The notes under the pieces are model-generated. The model saw nothing but the letters and a program-made list of their open reading frames with translations, ran no database searches and had not been told where the DNA came from. From NCBI GenBank assembly GCA_002102555.1, contig MCFL01000047.1, positions 62,001 through 126,000 of the forward strand: a DNA stretch of 64,000 nucleotides. The letters are read 5' to 3'. This document shows positions 24,980 to 38,764 of this stretch, in pieces. The position numbers and the translations under genes were made by a program. Numbering within the stretch: the stretch's first letter is position 1; the number at the start of each line of letters is the position of its first letter. Source of the stretch: Catenaria anguillulae PL171. Its lineage: Eukaryota; Blastocladiomycota; Blastocladiomycetes; Blastocladiales; Catenariaceae.

Positions 24980-26305
24980 GGTGAGGTGATGAGAGGGGAG
25001 TGATGTGGAAGGTCTATACGTCTATAGTGTATAAGGAAGTGGGTGGGTGCTTGGGAGGCGGATGAACAGGGCAGTTGCTGATGAAGGGAAATCGAGATGG
25101 GACGGGAGGTGGTGGGTGACAGCCAGGTATTTATGGTGTAGGTAGGTAGGGACTGGGATCGCAGATTCAAAGTCGGCGGGCAGTTCGATTCGTGAGACAA
25201 GAGTCCAAACGTGGAAACGGAAACGTGGGAATGCCACTCGCATTCAACGCGTTTGAATGGAATGAGTCGAAAATGAACGCTCCCTCGCCACTTTTCTCAT
25301 AACCGTTGCTGTATTGTGCTCTAAAGCCCCGAGCAGTGCGTGACCTTCATTTCTCGACATTCGTCGTATCTGCTCATAAGACCTGGCAAAATGGCAAGCA
25401 AGCACGAGATTGGGCTGGTTCCACGGCTGAGAGTCACGGCCCAGGTGGCTCGCGTGTTGGGTTGGAGCTAAGGATCGCGTCAACGCAGGCATTTCAAACT
25501 TGAGCTCCAAGTCGACTGGCACAGCTTCCCCAGCCGTCTGGTGAATGTTTCTACAATATCGAGTCAAAAGGCAGTGGCTCGGATTGTCCGTTGTTCTCGG
25601 AGTGCACAGCCGTGATTGGTGGGAGAGGAAAATTGTACGAAGAACCGCGGTCGCCAATATCAGCCCTGAGTCCCTGACCTTCGAGGGCTGCTTTTCCCCT
25701 AAAGTGGATCAGACGAGTCACTACTGCAGTTCGCAATGCATGCAACTGGAAGAGTCGTCGAGGTCTGTGTCAAGGTAGAACAGTGACCCTTGTCATCTGT
25801 CGTCGCCAGAAGAGTGGGATCCAATACTGTAGTCATTTACATTCATTTCCTCCGAATGTCACAAACTGGTCTGGCGGCGCCCCCAATGGCGGGCTTTGCA
25901 GGCGTGGCTGTCGCCAGTTCTTCTTGATGTGACATGTCGTTATCCTTCGGCATGACTGGCCGATGGGGCTCAATGGGGCCACATACTGAGCAGCTTATGG
26001 CTGGGAGCGGTTGGCCGAACGGAGCAAGCCATGCATCTGAACCGCCAACCCCGACCCCCGACGGTTGACCAGGCGTGACTGTTGGCGTGACCCACATATC
26101 GGCTTGGCGTGCACCTCTTTGCCAGCGGTGTACCCACTCAAAAGTTTGCAGTTTGAAAACGAGATATGTATTTACTATCACAAGTCAATCTAAGTACACA
26201 GTGCCACTCTGGATATCGATTCAACCTTGAGCAATGCAGCAAGCTCCAACGCAATGACCCATTAGCTAGCCAAACTCGCTCCCGCTTCCCCCGTTGTTGC
26301 CTGTC
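24980..26305. other. Intergenic region, about 1.3 kb
   Basis: Holds the promoter of the secreted repeat protein (minus strand) and that of the duplicated-motif protein (plus strand). A GGTAGG-rich stretch lies at about 25130-25150. Open frames here lack ATG starts or show no protein-like character. No RNA gene or repeat recognised. Confidence 0.4.
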
Positions 26306-28156
26306 ATGTCGGCCACCATCTCCTCCCTCGTCTCCGGCGCAGTGGTGCCGCCACCGCCGCCACCCACTTGCGCCGATGCTACCGCCTCTCGAGACCCGTC
26401 GGCAACGCAGCCCCTCACGCCAGCGCAACTTTCGCCCTTTCCTCCAATCCCTGCCCATTCCTCCTCAAACGACGACTCGGCCTCCATTCATGCGCTCCCC
26501 TCATCGGACCCATCTGCCTTCGACCCAGCACCTCGTGTCCGGGCAAACTCGTTTCCGACATCCAAACGAGAGTGGTCCGCCGCAGAGGCCCGCCAAGCCG
26601 CCGCAGAAGCCTCGGGAAAGTCTGGTTGGAAGAAGCGGTGGCGCAAGATCCGCAACTTGTTCAAGGCCATGCGCGGCGCTTTCCGCTCATCGTCCAGCTC
26701 AAAATCAGATGCCGGCTCAGTTATAGAAAAGGACGAGCGCGGCTTGTTGATGGTGCCGAAGCGTAAACACAAGGCAACCATGGTGAAAGAGGTGCTGCCA
26801 CCACCAATGCCGCCGGTTCCGCCAGTTCCGCCGTTGCCTGAAATCAAAGAGGAGCGCGCCGATACTGGCGCATTTGGCGTCTATTCAGTGTCCCATCACC
26901 ACATTGCTGGATCCTCACCCTCGCCCATCGCAGCCGAAAATGACGCCGATGACGATTCCACGCCATTGGCACTGCTCAACTCACCCGAGCTCGCACCACC
27001 ACGGATCCCTGCAATCCCCTTCCCTCCCGCATCAGCAGGGGCAAACAATATCTCCCCACCTCCGTCACCGCCACTTCACATCACGCCACCACAGCTCCTG
27101 ATTACGCTCGACGACGGCTACGTCTACGAAGCATTCACCATCGAACGCGCCCACGTCGTCTTCCCGCGCCGCTCCACCGACTCGACAGTACCCACCGTCG
27201 ACCGCCGCCGCCGGGTCAGGCGACGGTCAAAGACGCCCGCCGCCGATGAGGGCGAGCAGCCAGCAATCTCCATTTCAACCGAGGCGGCGAATGCGTTGAA
27301 TGACGACGAGGCACCGCCATTGCCGTCGCCAACACCTACATGGGCGAGTTCAGAATCTTTGGAACGGAGCTCGGTCTTGGCATCGACGCTCGATCGCATG
27401 TTGCGTCGTAAACGGGAGACACCGGGGTCTGCCGAGCAGGTATCGGCACAGCACGACGATGAGGACATGGACGTGATGGATCATCGTGGGTATTGCACAG
27501 CGACGGATACCGAATCCGAGCTAGAGTCACCGGCGGCTGGTCCATCGGCCGTTTCCGGCGCTTCTCCTGTTGACGACAAGGCCCTCGACGAAGGCTTTGT
27601 TGCCGAACTTGGTAACGACGACACACACCCGCCCAGTCCGACTGATGCGCTCCCGCCGGTTACATCATCCCCATCCCTCAGCCGCAACTCGATTTCCTCC
27701 TTTGACCTCTCGGATCTAGCCCACTCTACCCCGCTCCCACTCTCCCCGACCTCGGCTGCCTTCATCTCATCCTCACCACCGGCCTCGTCCGTTTCGCTTA
27801 CTCCATCCGACTCGGGCGTCGCGCACGACGACGAGCACGAGCACGAGCACGTCGAGCCCGCGCCTGAGCCCGACCAAGTCGTCGACAGCGGCACGCACTC
27901 GGACGACCTTGCCGACTCTGCCGGTGCTCCCACAGCGTCTCCGCCATCCATTCAAATCACGCTCGACGACGGATTTGCATACGACGCATTCACCATCGAA
28001 CGTGCACATAAGGTGTTTCCACGCCGTGCGGCCGAGCCCGGGTCGGGCGTCGCGACGATTGATCGGCGGCGGCGGGTCAGGCGCAGGAGCGAAATAGGCG
28101 GTGCAGAGCAGCAGCAAAAGCAGAAGCAGAAGCAGGCGCCCACGTCGGTCGAGTGA
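26306..28156 (+). CDS. Unidentified protein with a duplicated ITLDDG-AFTIERAH-FPRR motif
   Basis: An intronless frame of 616 residues from the ATG at 26306. Much of the protein is disordered, rich in Pro, Ser, Ala and acids, but three elements stand out. Residues 106-126 form a basic amphipathic helix (SGWKKRWRKIRNLFKAMRGA) flanked by serines. Residues about 266-312 and 551-597 are two copies of one motif. Each starts ITLDDG, then an aromatic residue, then Y-x-AFTIERAHxVFPRR, a 9-11-residue variable linker, and [TV]-x-[TV]-[VI]-DRRRRVRRRS. About 240 acidic, Ser/Pro-rich residues separate them, and the second copy lies close to the C-terminus. The basic ends could be nuclear localisation signals; the helix could bind membrane or calmodulin. 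I recognise no known family, and these roles are inference. Confidence 0.82.
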   Translation: MSATISSLVSGAVVPPPPPPTCADATASRDPSATQPLTPAQLSPFPPIPAHSSSNDDSASIHALPSSDPSAFDPAPRVRANSFPTSKREWSAAEARQAAAEASGKSGWKKRWRKIRNLFKAMRGAFRSSSSSKSDAGSVIEKDERGLLMVPKRKHKATMVKEVLPPPMPPVPPVPPLPEIKEERADTGAFGVYSVSHHHIAGSSPSPIAAENDADDDSTPLALLNSPELAPPRIPAIPFPPASAGANNISPPPSPPLHITPPQLLITLDDGYVYEAFTIERAHVVFPRRSTDSTVPTVDRRRRVRRRSKTPAADEGEQPAISISTEAANALNDDEAPPLPSPTPTWASSESLERSSVLASTLDRMLRRKRETPGSAEQVSAQHDDEDMDVMDHRGYCTATDTESELESPAAGPSAVSGASPVDDKALDEGFVAELGNDDTHPPSPTDALPPVTSSPSLSRNSISSFDLSDLAHSTPLPLSPTSAAFISSSPPASSVSLTPSDSGVAHDDEHEHEHVEPAPEPDQVVDSGTHSDDLADSAGAPTASPPSIQITLDDGFAYDAFTIERAHKVFPRRAAEPGSGVATIDRRRRVRRRSEIGGAEQQQKQKQKQAPTSVE

Positions 28157-28840: not shown

Positions 28841-30600
28841 ATGTCCGCCCAACCCCCGCCGCCTCCCCATGCGGCCTTGAACGAGCTCATGGCCGTTGAG
28901 CTGAATCCAATATGGGACCCAAAGGCGTTCGACACCTCGTACTCATCCATTTCGTACATTGTCAGTGCCATGCAAATCCCGCAAATCGCGCTGTCGATTT
29001 TTCTCAATGGCCTCATCCTATACCTGGCATTCTGGCGGCGGCCGCAGCTGGTTGCTTCAGCGGGAAACGTGTTAACTGTGAGTGTTTGGTATGGCGCTTC
29101 TTGGTCGTGACCTGGAGGATATCACCAGCAACTGACGGTTTGCAAATGTGTAGTCTATCCAACTTTCTTTTCGCATGGTACCTCTTCAGCGTCCGCGTCC
29201 GTCTCGTGATTGCGCTGGAATGGTCTAGGGTGTGTGCGTCGCCTCGCATTCGATTCATCTTCTCCGAAAAGCACAATCTGATTCAATCACGCCTAAACTC
29301 AGGCGATGTGCATGGAATTTTCCATTGTTTGTGTCTTCTTTGTGTGCCATATGGCCATCAACCTCATGGCCATCTGCTTTGAGCGCTACCTGTCGCTCGT
29401 CCTGCTCAAGCGCGCCAAGCGCAAATACGCATTGCTGGCGCTCATTGCCTCGGCCATCTCGTCCTTGTTTCTGACTATGCTACACCATGTTCCCGAGGGA
29501 ATCGCTCTGATCGGCCGTGCGGGGATCTATTGCTATCCAACGCGGGCAGGACATTGGCAAGGCGCCGTGGATGCAGCGGCAATGGTGGCGCACTTTGTCG
29601 CCATTTTCAGTGTGTTGCTTTGTTTATCCAATGTGTCGGGCAGACTCTCACTCAACGTTTTGTGTGTCCGTGTGTGCAGTGGGATACTCGCTCATTTTTA
29701 TTCAGCTCCGTAGCATTTCGCGCAAAGCCGCCAGTGCCATGGCTTTTCCAGATCTTGGCCAGACAACGCTTGGCAACTTGGGTCATCAACGCAATGCATT
29801 GAGCGGAACGGCACAGCGGCAGCAGGCAAGCGGCGGCACGCACAAGCAGCATGGCATGAAATCTGGAGGCAGCGTGGTTGAGGCGCCCGCCATGCGAATC
29901 GTGTACGTTTGTGAGCGCGGCAACGACTGCTGTGTTGGTGCGGGGTTCACCTAATATCATTTCTCGCCACCATACAGGGCAACTGCATCGCAAGTATCGA
30001 CCACGTCTTCCAACGGCGGCGGCACGGCTGTTTCCACCATGGCCAATGTGCCAATGATAGGACCGACGCTTTCGTTTACCGGCGTCGAATCCACAAGCAA
30101 AGCCCCATCAACGACTGGGCCAACCTCATCGACCATGTCTCGATTTCTTAAGCGCAAGGCATCTGTTGCGTCCATGGCCTCGTCCATGGTGTCGGCAAAG
30201 AACGCAGAAGGCAAGGTGGTACTAAGAGGAATGCTGTCATTGAGCTCATACACGTACGTCCTCTTGGTCGTTGGACCCGTAACGTGAAAGGGGTTAACCA
30301 TAAACCATGTGCGATGCAGGTGTTTTGTTGTGTCGTATTCGTATTTACGTATGTTTTGTGATTGCACGGTCGACAGGGTCGGACACGATCGCGAAACAGT
30401 GGGTGTGCTCACCTTTTCTTGTACGCAGTTTGGTCGGCCCTCATTCACGGGCAAAGACCGAGCGTCCAGTTTGATTGGTGTACGTCAATAACTTTTCTCA
30501 ACGGTGCGGAAATGACCTGTGGCACTTATCGCTCGCGCTTAAATACGTGAATCGTCTAGTCCTTGTGTCGACCAAGTTCATTCCCGACTTTTGCGTACGT
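28841..30600 (+). CDS. Rhodopsin-like (class A) G-protein-coupled receptor
   Basis: The ATG at 28841 opens a short Pro-rich N-terminus and TM1 (IALSIFLNGLILYLAFW). Predicted exons: 28841 to about 29080, about 29128-29230, 29303-29609, 29680-29902, 29978-30257, 30320-30348 and further. TM2 contains LSNFLFAWYLFSV. The third exon encodes TM3 with AINLMAICFERYLSLV: ERY is the class A E/DRY motif, and the Cys in AMCME lies exactly 25 residues before that Arg, as C3.25 does before R3.50. TM4 is ALLALIASAISSLFL. An extracellular loop with YCYPT supplies the disulfide partner. TM5 contains GYSLIFIQL. A long Ser/Thr-rich third intracellular loop (about 130 residues) precedes TM6 (YVFCCVVFVF). The exons for TM7 and the C-terminus are uncertain (30400-30600), and I could not find an NPxxY. 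The first exon junction is also approximate. Ligand unknown. Confidence 0.7.
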
Positions 30601-31479
30601 TGGCCAATGCATCTGCTTCTGGGAACCGCCGCTCATTGGCAGCCGACTCGCTCTTCATAGGAACCGCTGATTCTGTTCTTGCTCGATCGGCAGTTCAAGG
30701 ACGCATTCAAGGAACTGATGGGATGGGAATGACCAAAGCGTTGTGGACTTGCCGATTCAAGTGCGGGTTAGAGAAATGAGTATATTTAAAGTAGGTAGAG
30801 CCCGGTGAAGATCCTTTCGCTTGTCCTTGGTTCCTTGGTTTGCCGCTTGCCGATAGTAATCTTCAAGTTTCCAATGAATCGACTGTGCCGAACACGACAG
30901 ATAGTGGATGTGCGACTCGGAAGCATGGGACAGTAGAGAAATACGACTGCAAATATCTTGCATTCAGTCCACGATCAAGCAGCAGGCGGTTCTTCTGCGG
31001 GTTAGTCGATGATTGTCCCCAACTGTAGGGCCTGATGCGGAGGGCTTGGAAACACTGGTGTTTATCTTTTCTCAACTCTCTCGACCTTCGACAACTCTGG
31101 CCTTGCCTCACAAGTTGCGTAAGCTGTATCGATTGGCGAGTCTCGTAAATCCATGTCGGGTGGATGAAAAGCGCAACAGGAAACTAGCGCATGGACGGGC
31201 ATAATGGGCGGGAAACCAATGGTGAAACGTATCCACAAACATAAAATACAAAAGCTCCCACACATGGCTGAACCACTAACACCATCTCACACCATCAAGC
31301 GGCCATACTCGTCGCGATATCCACATGCACGCTCAGATACCAGACGATGCGCTAGAATATAACAACCATTTTCGCCGGGACTTGCCACCCATATCGAATC
31401 GACTGCCGCGGCACCTTGGCGACATTTGCCCACCAACCGACAATCCGATACGGTAATACACAATGTGATTATTCCAAAC
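30601..31479. other. Intergenic region downstream of GPCR-like gene
   Basis: Possibly includes the end of the GPCR-like gene. Short frames on both strands show no consistent coding signal, and I see no repeats or RNA genes. Confidence 0.35.
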
Positions 31480-32397: not shown

Positions 32398-34133
32398 TCA
32401 GTCCTCTTCATCCTCATCCATGTCTGACCACTCTGCTTCCCCTTCACTGTCGTCCTCGTCCTCGTCGTCATCATTCCCACTACCTTCGCTGTCACTACTA
32501 CTATCACTTTCCCGACCCTCCCTCCTCCTCGCATGCGCCTTTGCCGCCTGCCTCACCACCATATCGAAATACGCCACGGTCCGCCTCTCTGCCCTGCCAC
32601 CGTCATCCTCTCCCTCGCCAACGCCTTGCACCACGTCGCGAAACGCGCTCATGCACACGGCAGCCGACATGAGCGGTCTTGGCCCAGCCGCAGGTGGGCT
32701 GCCACTTGCGCCGTGCCCAAACGCAGACAGGCGCACGGAATGCTCGACGCCGCACGAAAACAGGTAGGGTAAATCCGGATGCGGCAGCACGCGGTTGGGC
32801 AGCGACATGTGGCCCCACAAGATGTTGTCTGCGCTTGTCACGTTGAGGCGCGGCAATGGCTCGGTTGGGCTCGGGCTCGGGTCGTGTGCGTAGGGCGAGA
32901 GCAAGGCCGGTGGAATGCGCCACGTGTATATGCCAAAGTCGTCGCTGCCGCATACAACATGTGTGCCTGTTGGCAGAAAAGCTGGCACTTTGTGGGTTGC
33001 AATGTTGGAGAAGCCGGAAAAGTGGAAGGCGTCAGGATGGGCTGGATCGGGTGGTGGGGTCGAGTGAGAAAATGAGGCGAGCGGGGAGGCGTGGTATGTT
33101 GAGTAGAGATGTGGCAGGCCACTGCATGTGGATAGGCGAGGAGAGGCCAGAGGGTGAGCGAGAGGTCACCATCATAGAGAACGAATCGCGGTGAGCAAAG
33201 TACGTGCAATTGAGAGAGGGCGACGAGGTGGCGCGCGTCGGGCGAGAGGGCGAGTGACGCAATGTTATTGTCGCTGGTTAGATACTGTAAGTGTAAGGAG
33301 AAACACCATGAGTCAAAAATGGATTGAACAGCACCAGCAACAAGTGAATACTTTGCACGCACCTCCATAACTGGCTCTGGTTCATTTCCTCGAAAAAACA
33401 CTCTCCACTTCCGCTTGCCCCTGCTTTGCCCGCCGTTCCCTTCACTTTCGCGTTTGCGCTTGCGACTTGATCCGCCTCCGCCGAAACACGTGCGAAAATC
33501 AAACCTCGCCAACAATCCGCCCTCGCCACTCACTATGAACTCATTGTCGTGCAAAACATCGACATGCGACACGGGCAACGTGAATTGCAAACAGCCAACG
33601 CTCTTGGTCGCTTCGCGCACATCCCAGACCCTGACGGATCCGTCGTCGCATGCCGAGAGAAACACCCGCTCATTGAGTGTGGCGAGCCGCTGGACCACAT
33701 CTGCGTGCTCTTCGGCAAATGTGAGCGAGGGCTGGTTGCCGTGCGGAAAGTGATTGATGTCGTGGCACCGGACGATTCCGTCTGCACCCGAGGAGACAAT
33801 CAGTGTGGGCGAGGCAAAGATGGCGTGGAACACGTTGCGAGTGGCGCCGGTGAGTGGCGTGGTGATCGGGTTGGTAGACGGGAGGTCGTAAACGGGCCAC
33901 AGGCGCAGGTGAGTGTCGTCAGATCCGGATAGGAGCAGGCGCAAGCAAGGTGAGAGGGCGAGCGAGTTGACGCAGCCCGAATGGGCATTGAGGAGAACCG
34001 ACGAAGAGACAGAGGGCCAGGACCAATGTGTGCCTGGTTGGGCGCGGTGGCGGTCACGGTCCAGTGAGCGCGAACGCAAGAATAGTGGATATGGGGACAG
34101 TGCTGTTGATGGTAATTCGTCAATGGATTCCAT
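32398..34133 (-). CDS. WD40-repeat protein, DCAF5-like CUL4 substrate receptor candidate
   Basis: Start ATG at 34133. The first exon (34133 to about 33365) carries WD40 repeats: NAHSGCVNSLALSPCLRLLLSGSDD, shown by its ends NAHSGCVNS and LLLSGSDD, then VFHAIFASPTLIVSSGADG, then EEHADVVQRLA and SACDDGSVRVWDVREATK. WDVR is a DWD-box WDxR motif, typical of DDB1-binding receptors. A GT-AG intron at about 33364-33287 leads to YLTSDNNIASLALSPDARHL. After a 48-bp intron (33169-33122) the protein resumes with LYSTYHASPLASF, a Pro-rich loop, then THVVCGSDDFGIYTWRIP and NRVLPHPDLPYLFSCGVEHS, the arrangement seen in DCAF5/WDR22-type proteins. The C-terminus is a long acidic Ser/Asp/Glu tail. Splicing at 33169/33122 leaves the frame one base short unless the G run there is one base longer. 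Basic insertion with RKRKRE near residue 225. Confidence 0.8.
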
Positions 34134-34617
34134 TGCGTTGAGTGAGTCATTCCGGCTGTAACTTTTTGGTTGTTTGGTTCACTGTCAATATTTCTACACT
34201 GACGTCATCACAACCACAACTGAACCACGTTTCCATGCCATGTTCACAGTTCTGGAACACTTGTTAGCTCGTCTGGACGCGTCATGCACAATCGAGAATC
34301 GAGCAGCGGTTCCCAGCTCGATCCAACTCAGCAAGATCAAGATATGTCTCAATAGACTTGCACATCAAGGAGAGCACCCGTGATATATTTACGTGACGTT
34401 TTCACTTTCAATCGTGAATGAAATGATATGTTCTCTCCATTCATAGAGGGTACTGTACTTCTTGCTGCGCACACACACATCGTCTTCGCACTCGAAGCAT
34501 TTGCCCCGCCCGACCAAGCACTTTTTCGTTACAAGATTCATTTTCATTTACGTTCCATCCGATCCCGCCCTCCGCAAACAGCACCAGGACGCGCGTCCAA
34601 CGCAACCCATCATTAAC
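34134..34617. other. Divergent promoter region of WD40 and Ca2+-ATPase genes
   Basis: About 480 bp between divergent start codons. No coding exon, repeat or recognisable regulatory motif seen. Confidence 0.4.
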
Positions 34618-37600
34618 ATGACGGCCTCGCCCAGCCGCTCGCCCACGGCCCCACCTGCCGCCGCCGCCTCCTCGGCCAATGCCCAACCGACCCCACCCTT
34701 CTCGATCGCACAACAAACCCTGTCCAACCTCATTGACCACAAGGACCGCACGCTGTACGACTCGCTCGGTGGCACGCGCGGCATTGCCCGCTGCTTGCTC
34801 GTCAACCCGGCCGCGGGTCTGTGTCCGCCTGCCGACTACTCGACACCCACCCAGACGCGCCTCGACGATCTGGCAGCCGCCTCCAATGCACAAGGATCGT
34901 GGCTGTCGCGACTGCTCCCGTCGAGCAACAAGGAGGGAAAGCATGTCAAGCTCAAGAATGCGGCCAGCAATGAGGATGTGCCCATGGAGGTGCAGAGGAG
35001 TGCAAGAACAGGAGCAAATGCCGCCGTGTCGGGCACAGGAACGGGTCTGTCATTGGCGGCCACGGTTTCGATTGCCCAGGATGTCATTGACGAGGACGAG
35101 AGTGGCGGCGAGCCCATGCCGCAAGGTTCAACGCTTGACGCATTGGACAAGCGTGTCGAGGTGTTTGGCGAAAACAGATTGCCTGAGGTGAAATCGGCCA
35201 CGATTTTCGGTGCGATAAACCTTGTTGGTACAGAGTTTGTGCAAGCTCACTGACGCATGATTCATGATTCTCTTGGCAATTTGTATTTAGAACTCATGTG
35301 GGACGCTCTTCAAGACAAGACGCTCATCTTTTTAACGTGTGCCGCCCTCGTCTCGCTCGGCATTGGCCTCTACGAAGACTTTGGCATGCACCACGACGAC
35401 AAGGGCGAGAAAATCAAGTGGGTCGAAGGCGTCGCCATCATCATTGCCGTCACCATTGTGGTGCTTGTCGCCTCGGTCAACGACTGGCAAAAGGAACGCC
35501 AGTTTCGCGCCCTCTCAAAGCGCGCCGACGACCGCCAAGTCAAGGTTGTGCGCAATGCCCAGGTGCAGCTCATTTCCGTGTACGACTTGCTCGTGGGCGA
35601 CGTGCTGTGCCTCGAACCCGGCGACGTGATTCCCGTGGATGCCGTGCTGCTTAGCGGACATGGCGTGAAATGCGACGAGTCGGCTGCCACGGGAGAGTCG
35701 GATGCAGTCAAGAAGGCGGCAGACAAGGATGTGTTTTTGCTTTCGGGATCCAAGGTGCAAGAGGGCACGGGCCGCGGACTGGTTGTGGCCGTGGGCGAGC
35801 ACTCGTTCCATGGCAGAACAATGATGAGCATGCGCACTGAGGATCAAGAAACGCCGTTGCAGGTCAAACTGAACGAGCTGGCCGAGGACATTGCAAAACT
35901 CGGTGGGGCCGCGGCATTGTTGATGCTAGTTGTGTTGCTCGTCAAATATTTGATTACGACGGGTATGGCCGGCGGGTTTAATCCAAGTGGTCCCAATTGG
36001 CAGAGTGTGCCCAAGATCGTTGAGGCTGTTACTCAGGTACCGTTTCCACCACCATGTTTTCACACATACATACCGAAAGTCTGCTCATGTCACTAAAGTC
36101 ATTGGCAATGCACATGTGTCTAGATTGTCATCACAACCATCACAGTGCTGGTCGTTGCCGTCCCGGAAGGCCTCCCGCTCGCCGTCACCCTGTCGCTCGC
36201 ATTCGCCACCAAAAAGATGCTCGCCGACAACAACCTGGTTCGCGTGCTTGCGGCATGCGAAGTCATGGGCAACGCAACCACGGTGTGCTCGGATAAGACA
36301 GGCACGCTCACGCAAAACCGCATGACGGTCGTCCGCGGTATCTTTGGGCACACGGACGCAACCCACGAATCGGAAGGCCAAATGAAACACGAGGACGATG
36401 CCGGTCGACTCAAGTCTCTTGTCACGGACGACACCTTGTACGCGCTCGTCCACGAAAACATTGCCGTCAACTCGAGCGCGTTTCTCGACACGGACGCCAA
36501 ATCGGGCGCAACCTCGTTTGTTGGATCCAAGACCGAAACTGCATTGCTTGACATGCAGCGCCGCGCCGGTGTGGATTTTGCGGCCGTGCGAGCAAAGTCC
36601 AAGCAGGTGCACGTGTACCCGTTTTCGTCGGCAAACAAATGGATGGGCACACTTGCTTCACCTGCCCCGAATCACTTGCGCTTGCACGTCAAGGGCGCGT
36701 CCGAGATTGTGCTTGCGCATTGCGCTTCCGTGTACGTTCCGGGCCAGGGGCCACGGCCATTGACCGGCGACAGGCTCAAACATTTCCAGCACGTGATTGA
36801 TGCGTACGCCAACCAGAGCTTGCGGACGATTGCTCTGGCGTACCTCGATACCGACAGCGAGCGTGTACCGAGGGATTTGGTCACCAACATGCCACTGGTC
36901 AGCACCTCGGGTGGCGACGTGAGTATTGTCACGAGTATGGAGCTGAGCGCCGCGATTGCCGGCAGCGAAAATAACTTGCACGCTCCACCGTCTCCCAGTG
37001 GTTTTAGGCAAGGTGCCGGGTCGCAGACGCTTGGTGTACCCGGTGGCTCATCGACTCCCAATGGGCTGGGTCCAAAGGCCAGGCACACGGCCACATGGTC
37101 GGGGCATCCAGATGGACCTGGTCTTGTGCTCTTGGGTATTGTCGGCATTGAAGATCCGGTCCGCCCGGGCGTTCCAGAAGCCGTTCAGCAGTGCCAGCGT
37201 GCAGGCGTGTTTGTGCGCATGGTCACGGGCGACAATGTTGCGACGGCAAGGGCGATTGCTGCGAAATGTGGCATTTACCAGCGCGGCGGGCTCGTCATGG
37301 AGGGCCGCACGTTCCGCAAGCTGCCCGTTGACGTGATGGATCGCGTGATTCCCAGGCTGCAAGTGCTTGCTCGGTCGAGTCCTACGGATAAGCAGTTGTT
37401 GGTTGAGCGGCTCAAGGCGCTCGGAGAGACGGTTGCAGTGACGGGTGATGGAACAAATGATGGGCCTGCGCTCAAGCTGGCCGATGTCGGGTTTAGTATG
37501 GGCATTGCTGGCACCGAGGTGGCAAAGGAGGCGAGTGCGATTATCTTGATGGATGACAATTTTGCGTCCATTGTCAAGGCGCTGTTGTGGGGCCGGTCAG

Positions 37601-38764
37601 TCAACGATTCTGTTCGCAAGTTTCTTCAGTTCCAGTTGACGGTCAATGTGACTGCCGTCGTGGTCACGTTTGTGAGTGCCGTGAGCAGCAGCGAGCAGCG
37701 CAGTGTGTTAACGGCCGTGCAGCTCTTGTGGGTCAACTTGATTATGGACTCGCTCGCGGCGTTGGCATTGGCGACCGAACCGCCGTCAAATGAGATGCTG
37801 GTACGCCGTCTGCTTTGCGCACCGCCATGGACGACTGCCGCATGTGGACTGACACCAGGTATGCTCAACAGAATCGCTTGCCAGATAGCAAGGCCGCGCC
37901 GCTCATTTCCTACCACATGTGGAAAATGGTGATTGGCCAAGCCAGTTTCCAAATCATTGTCAATTTGCTCTCGCTCTACCTTGGCCCGCAAATATACGGC
38001 CCAAAGCCGTCAGACCGCGCGTCGTTGAATACCTTTGTGTTCAACTCGTTCATCTTTTTGCAAGTCTTCAACGAAATCAAGTACGTTTTCCCTTGTTTCA
38101 CTTGATTCCCTCCTGTCTGTTGCTCATCTTCGATGCGCTACCTTTCCACAGCTGCCGCCGACTCGACAACCAGCTCAATACATTCAAGGGCATGCACCGC
38201 AACCCGTACTTTATCTCCATCCTCATCCTGACTGTGGCACTCCAAGCCGTCATTGTCACTTTTGGTGCGTCTGCATTCCAAACTGTCCCACTGTCTGCCG
38301 GCGAATGGGTCGCATCGATCGCCATTGGCTTCCTCTCGATTCCAGTGGGTATCATTGTGCGCCTGCTGCCTGACTGGGGCTACAAGCCGCCTGTGGACGA
38401 CCGCGTGGTCATGACAAAAGAGCGGCTCGCGTGGGTCGGCGCCATTTCAACGGTCCAGACGCAGCTCAAGGTGTTTAATGCGCTGCGCGGGTCGGGCAGG
38501 CTGCAGCATTTGGCGGCAGGCGGAGCAGCGAGCAGGAGGAATGTTGGAAGTGTCAGTTTGAGCTCGCGGCAGGATGTCTTTTCGAGCGGAGCGGCATTGA
38601 CCGGCGGAAGCAATGCTGCTTTGGGAGGCAAGGCCAAGGGTGGGGGGTATACGGGCCCGTCGTCCAGTGCGGCGGCCAGCGGCGGGCTACTGTCGCCCGG
38701 TGCAAGTGGAGGGTCGCCAAAGAAGACAAAGGGAGGGTACTTTACGATTGATGATGACGCCTAA
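34618..38764 (+). CDS. P2B-type (PMCA-like) calcium-transporting ATPase
   Basis: Predicted exons 34618-35209, 35291-36036, 36124-37800, 37872-38080 and 38152-38764 give 1,278 residues with all phases consistent. It pumps Ca2+ out of the cytosol, at the plasma membrane or vacuole. Hallmarks in order: LPEVKSATIFELMWDALQDK (start of TM1), CDESAATGES in the actuator domain, VAVPEGLPLAV in TM4, the phosphorylation site CSDKTGTLT with Asp at residue 503, GDGTNDGPALK and ADVGFSMG in the hinge, and LALATEPPSNEM followed by PLISYHMWK. Late TM helices contain SLNTFVFNSFIFLQVFNEIN. The N-terminal about 190 residues and the C-terminal about 110 are low-complexity Ser/Gly/Ala; no clear calmodulin-binding helix is visible at either end. 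The acceptor at 37871 was chosen because it alone keeps the frame with ATG-CTG before it. Confidence 0.95.

What the first reader, a model, noticed from the sequence alone, without database searches (positions are those of the whole stretch)
28841..30600. Class A rhodopsin-type GPCR with intact C3.25 and ERY
The predicted TM3 has the ERY motif, with a cysteine exactly 25 residues before its arginine, and a cysteine in the second extracellular loop. That spacing is the class A disulfide geometry and is hard to get by chance. Typical fungal GPCRs (Ste2, Ste3, cAMP-receptor-like, PQ-loop) lack it. In a zoosporic fungus such a receptor could act in zoospore chemotaxis or host sensing.
Basis: partly seen in the sequence, partly recalled or inferred. 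Interest (0 to 1): 0.75.

Follow-up and report, generated by a model that had tools for sequence, protein, structure and literature searches.

The report
Divergent animal-type receptor in zoosporic fungus
This is a real, complete-looking gene for an animal-type (class A) cell-surface receptor in a swimming-spore fungus, one of about a dozen related genes that keep the hallmark disulfide and ERY motif but have lost several other parts usually needed to switch such receptors on.

Summary
The genome appears to be Catenaria anguillulae PL171 (Blastocladiomycota). Contamination is unlikely: 13 ERY-bearing loci, plus 3 that lost ERY, lie on several contigs and share intron positions. A family profile matches solved class A receptors (best E 5.4e-8); the window protein alone is just under the 7tm_1 cut-off. 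Rhodopsin-family receptors in zoosporic fungi have been in print since 2012, so the kind is known. The variant looks new: none of 13 loci has Asp at 2.50 (9 have Asn), all have Asp/Glu at 7.46 and 7.49 and Leu at 7.53, and the window protein lacks Trp4.50, Pro5.50 and Pro6.50. The TM2/TM7 exchange resembles the mammalian GnRH receptor. Most likely it is a G-protein-coupled chemoreceptor; zoospore or host sensing is inference, with no expression or ligand data.

The parts
28841..29088 (+). exon 1: N terminus, TM1 (N1.50 = Asn56), start of TM2; donor gtatgg, phase 2
   Evidence: manual model and P0001-driven spliced alignment, 5' end extended to the ATG
29154..29229 (+). exon 2: rest of TM2; Asn86 at position 2.50 (29161-29163)
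   Evidence: register from the HMM alignment to 5-HT2A and octopamine receptors
29303..29609 (+). exon 3: TM3 with Cys111 (29309-29311) and ERY (29381-29389), TM4, ECL2 Cys185 (29531-29533), first part of TM5
29680..29902 (+). exon 4: second part of TM5 with Tyr213 (5.58), start of the long third intracellular loop
29745..29786 (+). conserved ICL3 motif FPDLGQTTLGNLGH (family pattern roughly FPxLGxTTMxxLG)
   Evidence: pattern found in 11 of 13 ERY-bearing loci, alignment
29978..30253 (+). exon 5: low-complexity Ser/Thr-rich ICL3 and start of TM6
30320..30348 (+). exon 6: middle of TM6 (SYSY in place of CWxP)
30429..30479 (+). exon 7: end of TM6, ECL3, start of TM7
30560..30594 (+). exon 8: TM7 with Lys409 at 7.42 (30574-30576) and Asp413 at 7.46
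30661..30732 (+). exon 9: Glu416-Pro417 (7.49-7.50; EPLIL in place of NPxxY), helix 8 LLDRQF, stop

Best explanation
The locus is a functional gene for a divergent class A (rhodopsin-like) G-protein-coupled receptor of the blastocladiomycete Catenaria anguillulae, one of an expanded family of about 13 ERY-bearing receptors in that genome. Shown by sequence in the window protein: seven hydrophobic segments, the C3.25 and ECL2 cysteines, E-R-Y, Y5.58, helix 8, and acidic residues in TM7 (7.46 and 7.49) in place of the one in TM2 (2.50). Inferred: the receptor sits in the plasma membrane with an extracellular N terminus, binds a small diffusible cue in the helical bundle near Lys7.42 (Lys or Arg in 12 of 13 loci), and activates one of the organism's several G-alpha proteins through Arg3.50. 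Because P6.50 and Y7.53 are missing, its activation switch must differ in detail from the textbook CWxP/NPxxY route. Also inferred: it serves chemosensing (food, host or partner cells), probably in the zoospore.
For: Nine-exon spliced model with eight GT-AG introns of 65-80 bp, internal boundaries recovered with paralogue P0001 as the query except for one donor, where I adopted P0001's choice; recurring intron positions among paralogues. Co-linear second copy with no indels in exons, 9 of 1317 exon bases differing against 1.9-3.7% in three flanking stretches; dN 0.005, dS 0.013. Family profile A1 (8 of the 13 loci) matches 223 PDB sequences at E up to 1; the 60 listed are all class A receptors, best 5-HT2A at 5.4e-8. 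P0001 scores 46.9 and C335b 37.5 bits for 7tm_1, cut-off 30.5. C3.25 in 12 of 13, ECL2 Cys in 13 of 13, ERY in 13 of 13. Possible partners: G-alpha matches over the cut-off on 15 contigs, some probably second haplotypes; RGS 9 matches; arrestin-C fold 2 matches.
Against: The window protein itself does not clear the Pfam cut-off: 30.1 bits against 30.5 for the 442-aa model, and no 7tm_1 hit listed for the refined 438-aa model. Member C101a likewise shows no 7tm_1 hit, and only 5 of 8 members of A1 do at E <= 0.1. Four of the seven x.50 reference residues are absent. The hydropathy peak of TM6 is modest. The single-sequence AlphaFold model of P0001 was too poor to confirm the fold (pLDDT 47.5; Foldseek found no match at E <= 0.001). 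The exon-intron contrast between the two copies is small (9/1317 against 9/569). No transcript, localisation, ligand or coupling data. The chemosensory role rests on family expansion and lifestyle alone.
Confidence: 0.62

Rival explanations
1. [quoted passage not shown]
For: Lys in TM7 in 10 of 13 loci; TM6-helix 8 profiles weakly match cone opsins; papers propose a type 2 opsin in S. punctatus and a wider spread in zoosporic fungi (PMC5410147, PMC9616733, passages).
Against: The lysine is 8, not 7, residues before P7.50, so at 7.42 and not 7.43; it is Arg in 2 and Met in 1 of 13 loci; position 3.28 is Phe or Tyr in 12 of 13 loci and Met in C1ab, so no Glu counterion there. The eLife 2025 survey detected no opsin lysine in its holomycotan rhodopsins (PMC12716839, section read).
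Confidence: 0.05
2. It is a receptor for an internal, self-made signal (a gamete or aggregation pheromone such as a terpenoid or oxylipin) rather than a host or food cue.
For: No STE2 or STE3 match was found in the genome (the controls were silent too, so weak). The TM3-TM5 profile's best PDB match is the prostaglandin EP2 receptor (E 0.0013), and a basic TM7 residue could meet an acidic lipid (inference).
Against: A family of about 13 diverging receptors is more than a single mating signal needs (inference). The EP2 match is weak and the basic residue is not at the prostanoid position (7.40; recalled).
Confidence: 0.2
3. It is a GPCR-derived 7TM protein that no longer signals through G proteins (decoy, chaperone-like or decaying gene).
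For: Loss of D2.50, P6.50 and Y7.53; three related loci have lost ERY (C1c, C201a, C201b); C235c has internal stops in its model and C1ab could not be modelled well.
Against: ERY is kept in 13 of 13 loci; Tyr5.58 in 9 of 13 (the other four have a gap or Pro there in their models); the aromatic at 8.50 in 13 of 13; the window gene is open and its exons differ less from the second copy than its flanks do.
Confidence: 0.13

Closest known systems
Fungal Rhodopsin-family GPCRs of Allomyces, Batrachochytrium and Spizellomyces (Krishnan et al. 2012, PMC3251606; 'class 15' of PMC12842992)
   Same: Zoosporic fungi; ERY in TM3; cysteines in ECL1 and ECL2; no Tyr in the TM7 motif (the paper gives NPXXX); 7tm_1.
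   Different: The paper names Asp in TM2 and NP in TM7 among the motifs of its 12 sequences. Here Asp 2.50 is absent in 13 of 13 loci and 7.49 is Asp (12) or Glu (1). I could not fetch those 12 sequences, so direct kinship is untested.
Mammalian type 1 GnRH receptor (PMC5662886, passages)
   Same: Asn2.50 with Asp7.49: the same TM2/TM7 exchange as in 9 of 13 loci here (8 with Asp7.49, the window gene with Glu).
   Different: GnRH receptor keeps CWxPY and Tyr7.53 and is an animal peptide receptor; I take the resemblance for convergence, without a test.
GPR84
   Same: Profile alignment puts CFVVSYSY of TM6 on CFALSYIP, i.e. Ser-Tyr in place of Cys-Trp at 6.47-6.48.
   Different: GPR84 keeps Pro6.50, the window protein does not; E is only 0.08.
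Prostanoid receptor EP2
   Same: The TM3 Cys, ERYLS and the ECL2 Gly-x-x-Cys all line up, with one 4-residue insertion in ICL2 (E 0.0013).
   Different: Covers TM3-TM5 only and is weak; no claim of orthology.
Spizellomyces punctatus type 2 opsin-like GPCR (PMC5410147, passages)
   Same: Zoosporic-fungus class A receptor with an (E/D)RY ionic lock.
   Different: It is reported to have the retinal lysine; the Catenaria lysine is one residue off and not invariant.

Membership tests
Class A rhodopsin-like GPCR (Pfam 7tm_1) | 7tm_1 score over the curated cut-off | tested here: inconclusive
   Window protein 30.1 bits against 30.5 (442-aa model); refined 438-aa model not listed. P0001 46.9, C335b 37.5, C101a none; 5 of 8 members of A1 match at E <= 0.1.
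Class A rhodopsin-like GPCR (Pfam 7tm_1) | Seven transmembrane helices and helix 8 | tested here: met
   Hydropathy of the first, 442-aa model (TM6 peak modest), family alignment, helices in the low-confidence model of paralogue P0001.
Class A rhodopsin-like GPCR (Pfam 7tm_1) | Cys3.25 to ECL2 Cys pair | tested here: met
   12 of 13 and 13 of 13 loci; aligned to EP2 and nociceptin receptor cysteines.
Class A rhodopsin-like GPCR (Pfam 7tm_1) | D/E-R-Y in TM3 | tested here: met
   ERY in the window protein and in the 12 other loci by which the clade was chosen.
Class A rhodopsin-like GPCR (Pfam 7tm_1) | Asp2.50 | tested here: not met
   Asn in 9, Tyr in 2, His in 1, Phe in 1 of 13; Asp in none. 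Not strictly defining: the type 1 GnRH receptor also lacks it.
Class A rhodopsin-like GPCR (Pfam 7tm_1) | CWxP with Pro6.50 | tested here: not met
   SYSY in the window protein; register from the weak GPR84 alignment.
Class A rhodopsin-like GPCR (Pfam 7tm_1) | N/DPxxY in TM7 | tested here: not met
   7.49-7.50 is Asp/Glu-Pro in 12 of 13, but 7.53 is Leu in 13 of 13: half met.
Class A rhodopsin-like GPCR (Pfam 7tm_1) | Sequence-profile kinship to solved class A receptors | tested here: met
   223 PDB sequences at E <= 1, the 60 listed all class A, best E 5.4e-8.
Type II opsin | Lys7.43 (retinal Schiff base) | tested here: not met
   7.43 is Phe or Leu in 13 of 13; the Lys/Arg is at 7.42.
Fungal Rhodopsin family of Krishnan et al. 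2012 | Clusters with the 12 published fungal sequences | not testable with these tools
   Those sequences could not be fetched; three protein searches returned only P0001.
cAMP-receptor-like (Dicty_CAR) | Dicty_CAR match / NxY in TM3 | tested here: not met
   ERY, not NxY; no Dicty_CAR hit for the window protein in Pfam; the 5 Dicty_CAR matches in the genome lie at other loci.

The most novel reading that the evidence does not exclude
Catenaria has evolved its own expanded chemoreceptor subfamily of class A GPCRs in which the activation core was rebuilt: the ERY lock and the disulfide are kept, while the TM2 acid is replaced by two TM7 acids (7.46 and 7.49) with a Lys/Arg one turn above (7.42), and Pro6.50 and Tyr7.53 are dispensed with. 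This would be a natural experiment showing which class A switches are essential for G-protein activation, in zoospore sensing of host or food cues.
Probability: 0.35. Interest if true: 0.6.

Novelty: new variant of a known kind. Interest (0 to 1): 0.42.

Why it matters
Class A receptors are thought to share one activation mechanism built on D2.50, CWxP and NPxxY (established knowledge, recalled). A fungal clade of about 13 paralogues that keeps the ERY and disulfide but rebuilt the rest gives an independent test of what that mechanism requires. It also names concrete candidate receptors for zoospore sensing; in the listings that I saw (15 of 150 papers; 6 of 6; 12 of 14; 10 of 10; titles and starts of abstracts only) no paper named such a receptor for a blastocladiomycete.

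Tried and rejected
Contamination from an animal: rejected; the gene sits on a contig of at least 126 kb near a WD40 protein and a P-type ATPase, has short introns, and has paralogues on C428, C335, C101, C411, C235 and C1.

First gene model with an intron-3 donor at 29622 (442 aa): replaced by the donor at 29610 (438 aa), which the P0001-driven alignment chose and which gives TM5 the length it has in P0001. The very first splice attempt was out of frame and was dropped. Searches used the 442-aa model.

Structure: AlphaFold2 of P0001 alone gave pLDDT 47.5 and pTM 0.31, with seven long helices plus helix 8 but no usable fold; Foldseek best E 1.5, so I draw nothing from it.

Relatives in other fungi: three protein searches (single protein, alignment A1, TM6-helix 8 region) returned only P0001. 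The word-based search and its candidate limits mean this does not show absence elsewhere. The window gene's own protein was not among the results either, so it may lack a deposited model of similar length.

Family count: small contigs C249, C138, C81, C49 and C115 are 95.4-97.7% identical and co-linear with stretches of C400, C428, C201 and C235. I count them as alternative haplotypes, which is inference; C138 and C115 also show many small gaps. Loci without ERY (C1c, C201a, C201b) and the canonical receptor C335o were left out of the 13, so 'ERY in 13 of 13' is partly by selection. In the tree of all 17 rows C335o (branch 3.13) fell among the ERY rows and C235a joined the ERY-less trio with support 46/11. 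In the tree C335o and C1ab were dropped (15 of 17 rows kept) and the 12 ERY rows then form one side of a 100/100 branch.

Only part of the family went into profiles: 8 of 13 in A1 and A3, 9 of 13 in A2. In A1 and A2 the C235a row is its second copy C49.

Full report
WHAT IS THERE. The window lies in G000:C400:62001-126000, a genome of 41.07 Mb in 457 contigs. The only protein returned by the database search, P0001, is named as a Catenaria anguillulae PL171 protein, and its contig has the same length, 122,347 bases, as C428 of this genome. I therefore take the organism to be C. anguillulae, a blastocladiomycete with swimming zoospores (lifestyle recalled).

GENE MODEL. I spliced the region by hand and then with a protein-to-genome alignment driven by P0001, 49% identical; the alignment's outer ends were extended to the ATG and the stop. 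Both give nine exons and differ only at the donor of intron 3, where I adopt the second: 28841-29088, 29154-29229, 29303-29609, 29680-29902, 29978-30253, 30320-30348, 30429-30479, 30560-30594, 30661-30732. All eight introns are 65-80 bp and GT-AG, and the product is 438 aa. Many intron positions recur at the same place and phase in the paralogues; their models were themselves driven by the window protein, P0001 or one another. A second, co-linear copy (C249, 96.8% over 9.8 kb) has no indel in the exons and 9 changes in 1317 exon bases, against 1.9-3.7% in three flanking stretches. The introns together differ at 9 of 569 compared bases, so the contrast with introns is modest; dN 0.005 and dS 0.013 rest on eight changed codons.

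THE OBSERVATION. ERY is at 135-137, Cys111 exactly 25 before Arg136, Cys185 in ECL2. In the window's six frames 3 of 22 [DE]R[YFW] motifs have Cys at -25, this one included, so the spacing alone is weak evidence. In the family it is strong: 12 of 13 loci, the exception being the poorly modelled C1ab.

THE FAMILY. P0001 and the window protein find 74 and 72 exon matches in the genome, second copies included. I fetched 16 stretches and modelled the loci. Thirteen loci bear ERY: the window gene, three in tandem on C428, two each on C335 and C101, one on C411, three on C235, one on C1. Of these, C235c has internal stops in its model and C1ab could not be modelled cleanly; the other 11 are open, though not all have a modelled start. 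Three more (C1c, C201a, C201b) keep the TM3 Cys but have lost ERY. A 17th, C335o, is a more canonical class A receptor (D2.50, ERF, NP in TM7; 50.2 bits for 7tm_1 over TM1-TM3 of a rough model). A tree of 15 of the 17 separates the 12 ERY rows from the three without it at 100/100 support, rooted on those three by my choice; the tree of all 17 did not, with C335o inside and C235a weakly outside.

IS IT CLASS A. The profile of eight members (A1) matches 223 PDB sequences at E up to 1; all 60 listed are class A receptors, best 5-HT2A at 5.4e-8. Its HMM alignment puts the family Asn on D2.50, Asp-Pro on N7.49-P7.50 and Leu on Y7.53. The window protein alone against the PDB gives only weak matches, best endothelin B receptor at E 0.046. 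A TM3-TM5 profile (A3) aligns both cysteines with those of EP2 (E 0.0013), and Tyr213 with the Tyr of YSLMIRRLR in the nociceptin receptor, 5.58 by recalled numbering (E 0.09). A TM6-helix 8 profile (A2) is weak, best E 0.029, and also draws unrelated proteins; its GPR84 alignment places SYSY on SYIP. The window protein is borderline for 7tm_1 (30.1 against 30.5; not listed for the refined model), whereas P0001 is clear (46.9). Of the seven x.50 reference residues the window protein keeps N1.50, R3.50 and P7.50 and lacks D2.50, W4.50, P5.50 and P6.50; W4.50 and P5.50 are judged by reading the sequence.

THE REBUILT CORE. Among the 13 loci: 2.50 is Asn 9, Tyr 2, His 1, Phe 1, Asp 0; 7.46 is Asp/Glu in 13; 7.49 is Asp 12, Glu 1 (the window gene); 7.50 is Pro 12, Ala 1; 7.53 is Leu in 13; 7.42 is Lys 10, Arg 2, Met 1; 5.58 is Tyr in 9, gap or Pro in the models of 4. 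The acid of the sodium/water network has thus moved from TM2 to TM7. The same exchange is known in the type 1 GnRH receptor, where Asn2.50 to Asp disrupts expression and Asp7.49 to Asn reverses that (PMC5662886, passages). A motif in the third intracellular loop (FPxLGxTTMxxLG) is found in 11 of 13 loci; I have no assigned function for it.

HOW IT PROBABLY WORKS. Shown: the sequence features above, and candidate partners (G-alpha matches over the cut-off on 15 contigs, some probably second haplotypes; RGS 9 matches; two arrestin-C matches). Inferred: a bundle-binding ligand, signalling through Arg3.50 to a G-alpha, and a sensory role in the zoospore. The opsin reading is unlikely because the lysine is at 7.42, not 7.43, and is not invariant.

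AGAINST THE LITERATURE. Krishnan et al. 2012 (PMC3251606, passages) reported 12 Rhodopsin-family receptors in three zoosporic fungi, with ERY, NPXXX, TM2 Asp and cysteines in ECL1 and ECL2. A 2025 survey counts 984 rhodopsin-class sequences in fungi, concentrated in Entomophthoromycotina, and names the glutamate class as the abundant one in Blastocladiomycota (PMC12842992, passages), which fits the many 7tm_3 matches here. A 2025 eLife paper reports D83 (2.50) conserved in its holomycotan rhodopsins and no opsin lysine (PMC12716839, one section read). My search for papers holding both Catenaria anguillulae and GPCR listed six, none of which by title and abstract start treats these receptors. 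So the kind is known; this D2.50-less, DPxxL clade is, as far as these searches show, undescribed. Supplementary tables were not open to me, so it may be in one.

Noticed in passing
G000 contigs C249, C138, C81, C49, C115: Small contigs 95.4-97.7% identical and co-linear with larger ones, as if a second haplotype had been left in the assembly; gene counts from this assembly would be inflated.
   Followed up: partly
G000, many contigs: 150 scored matches to 7tm_3 (class C, glutamate family) GPCRs, far more than class A; the search scored 150 of 169 candidates.
   Followed up: no
G000:C335:161064-162609 (L052): A separate, more canonical class A receptor (D2.50, ERF, NP) that sits on a very long branch.
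   Followed up: partly
G000:C201:215292-217295 and C1:440293-440844 (L062, L061): Three related 7TM loci that keep the TM3 cysteine but have lost ERY (VQY, DMY, EQL).
   Followed up: partly
window 29745-29786 and the same place in paralogues: Conserved third-intracellular-loop motif FPxLGxTTMxxLG in 11 of 13 loci, otherwise in a low-complexity loop; function unknown.
   Followed up: partly
window 26270-28156 (+): 628-aa low-complexity open frame without a Pfam match that holds two copies of a segment like ITLDDGxxYxAFTIERAHxVFPRR.
   Followed up: no
window 32838-34178 (-) and 36124-37932 (+): Neighbouring WD40-repeat protein and P-type cation ATPase segments.
   Followed up: no
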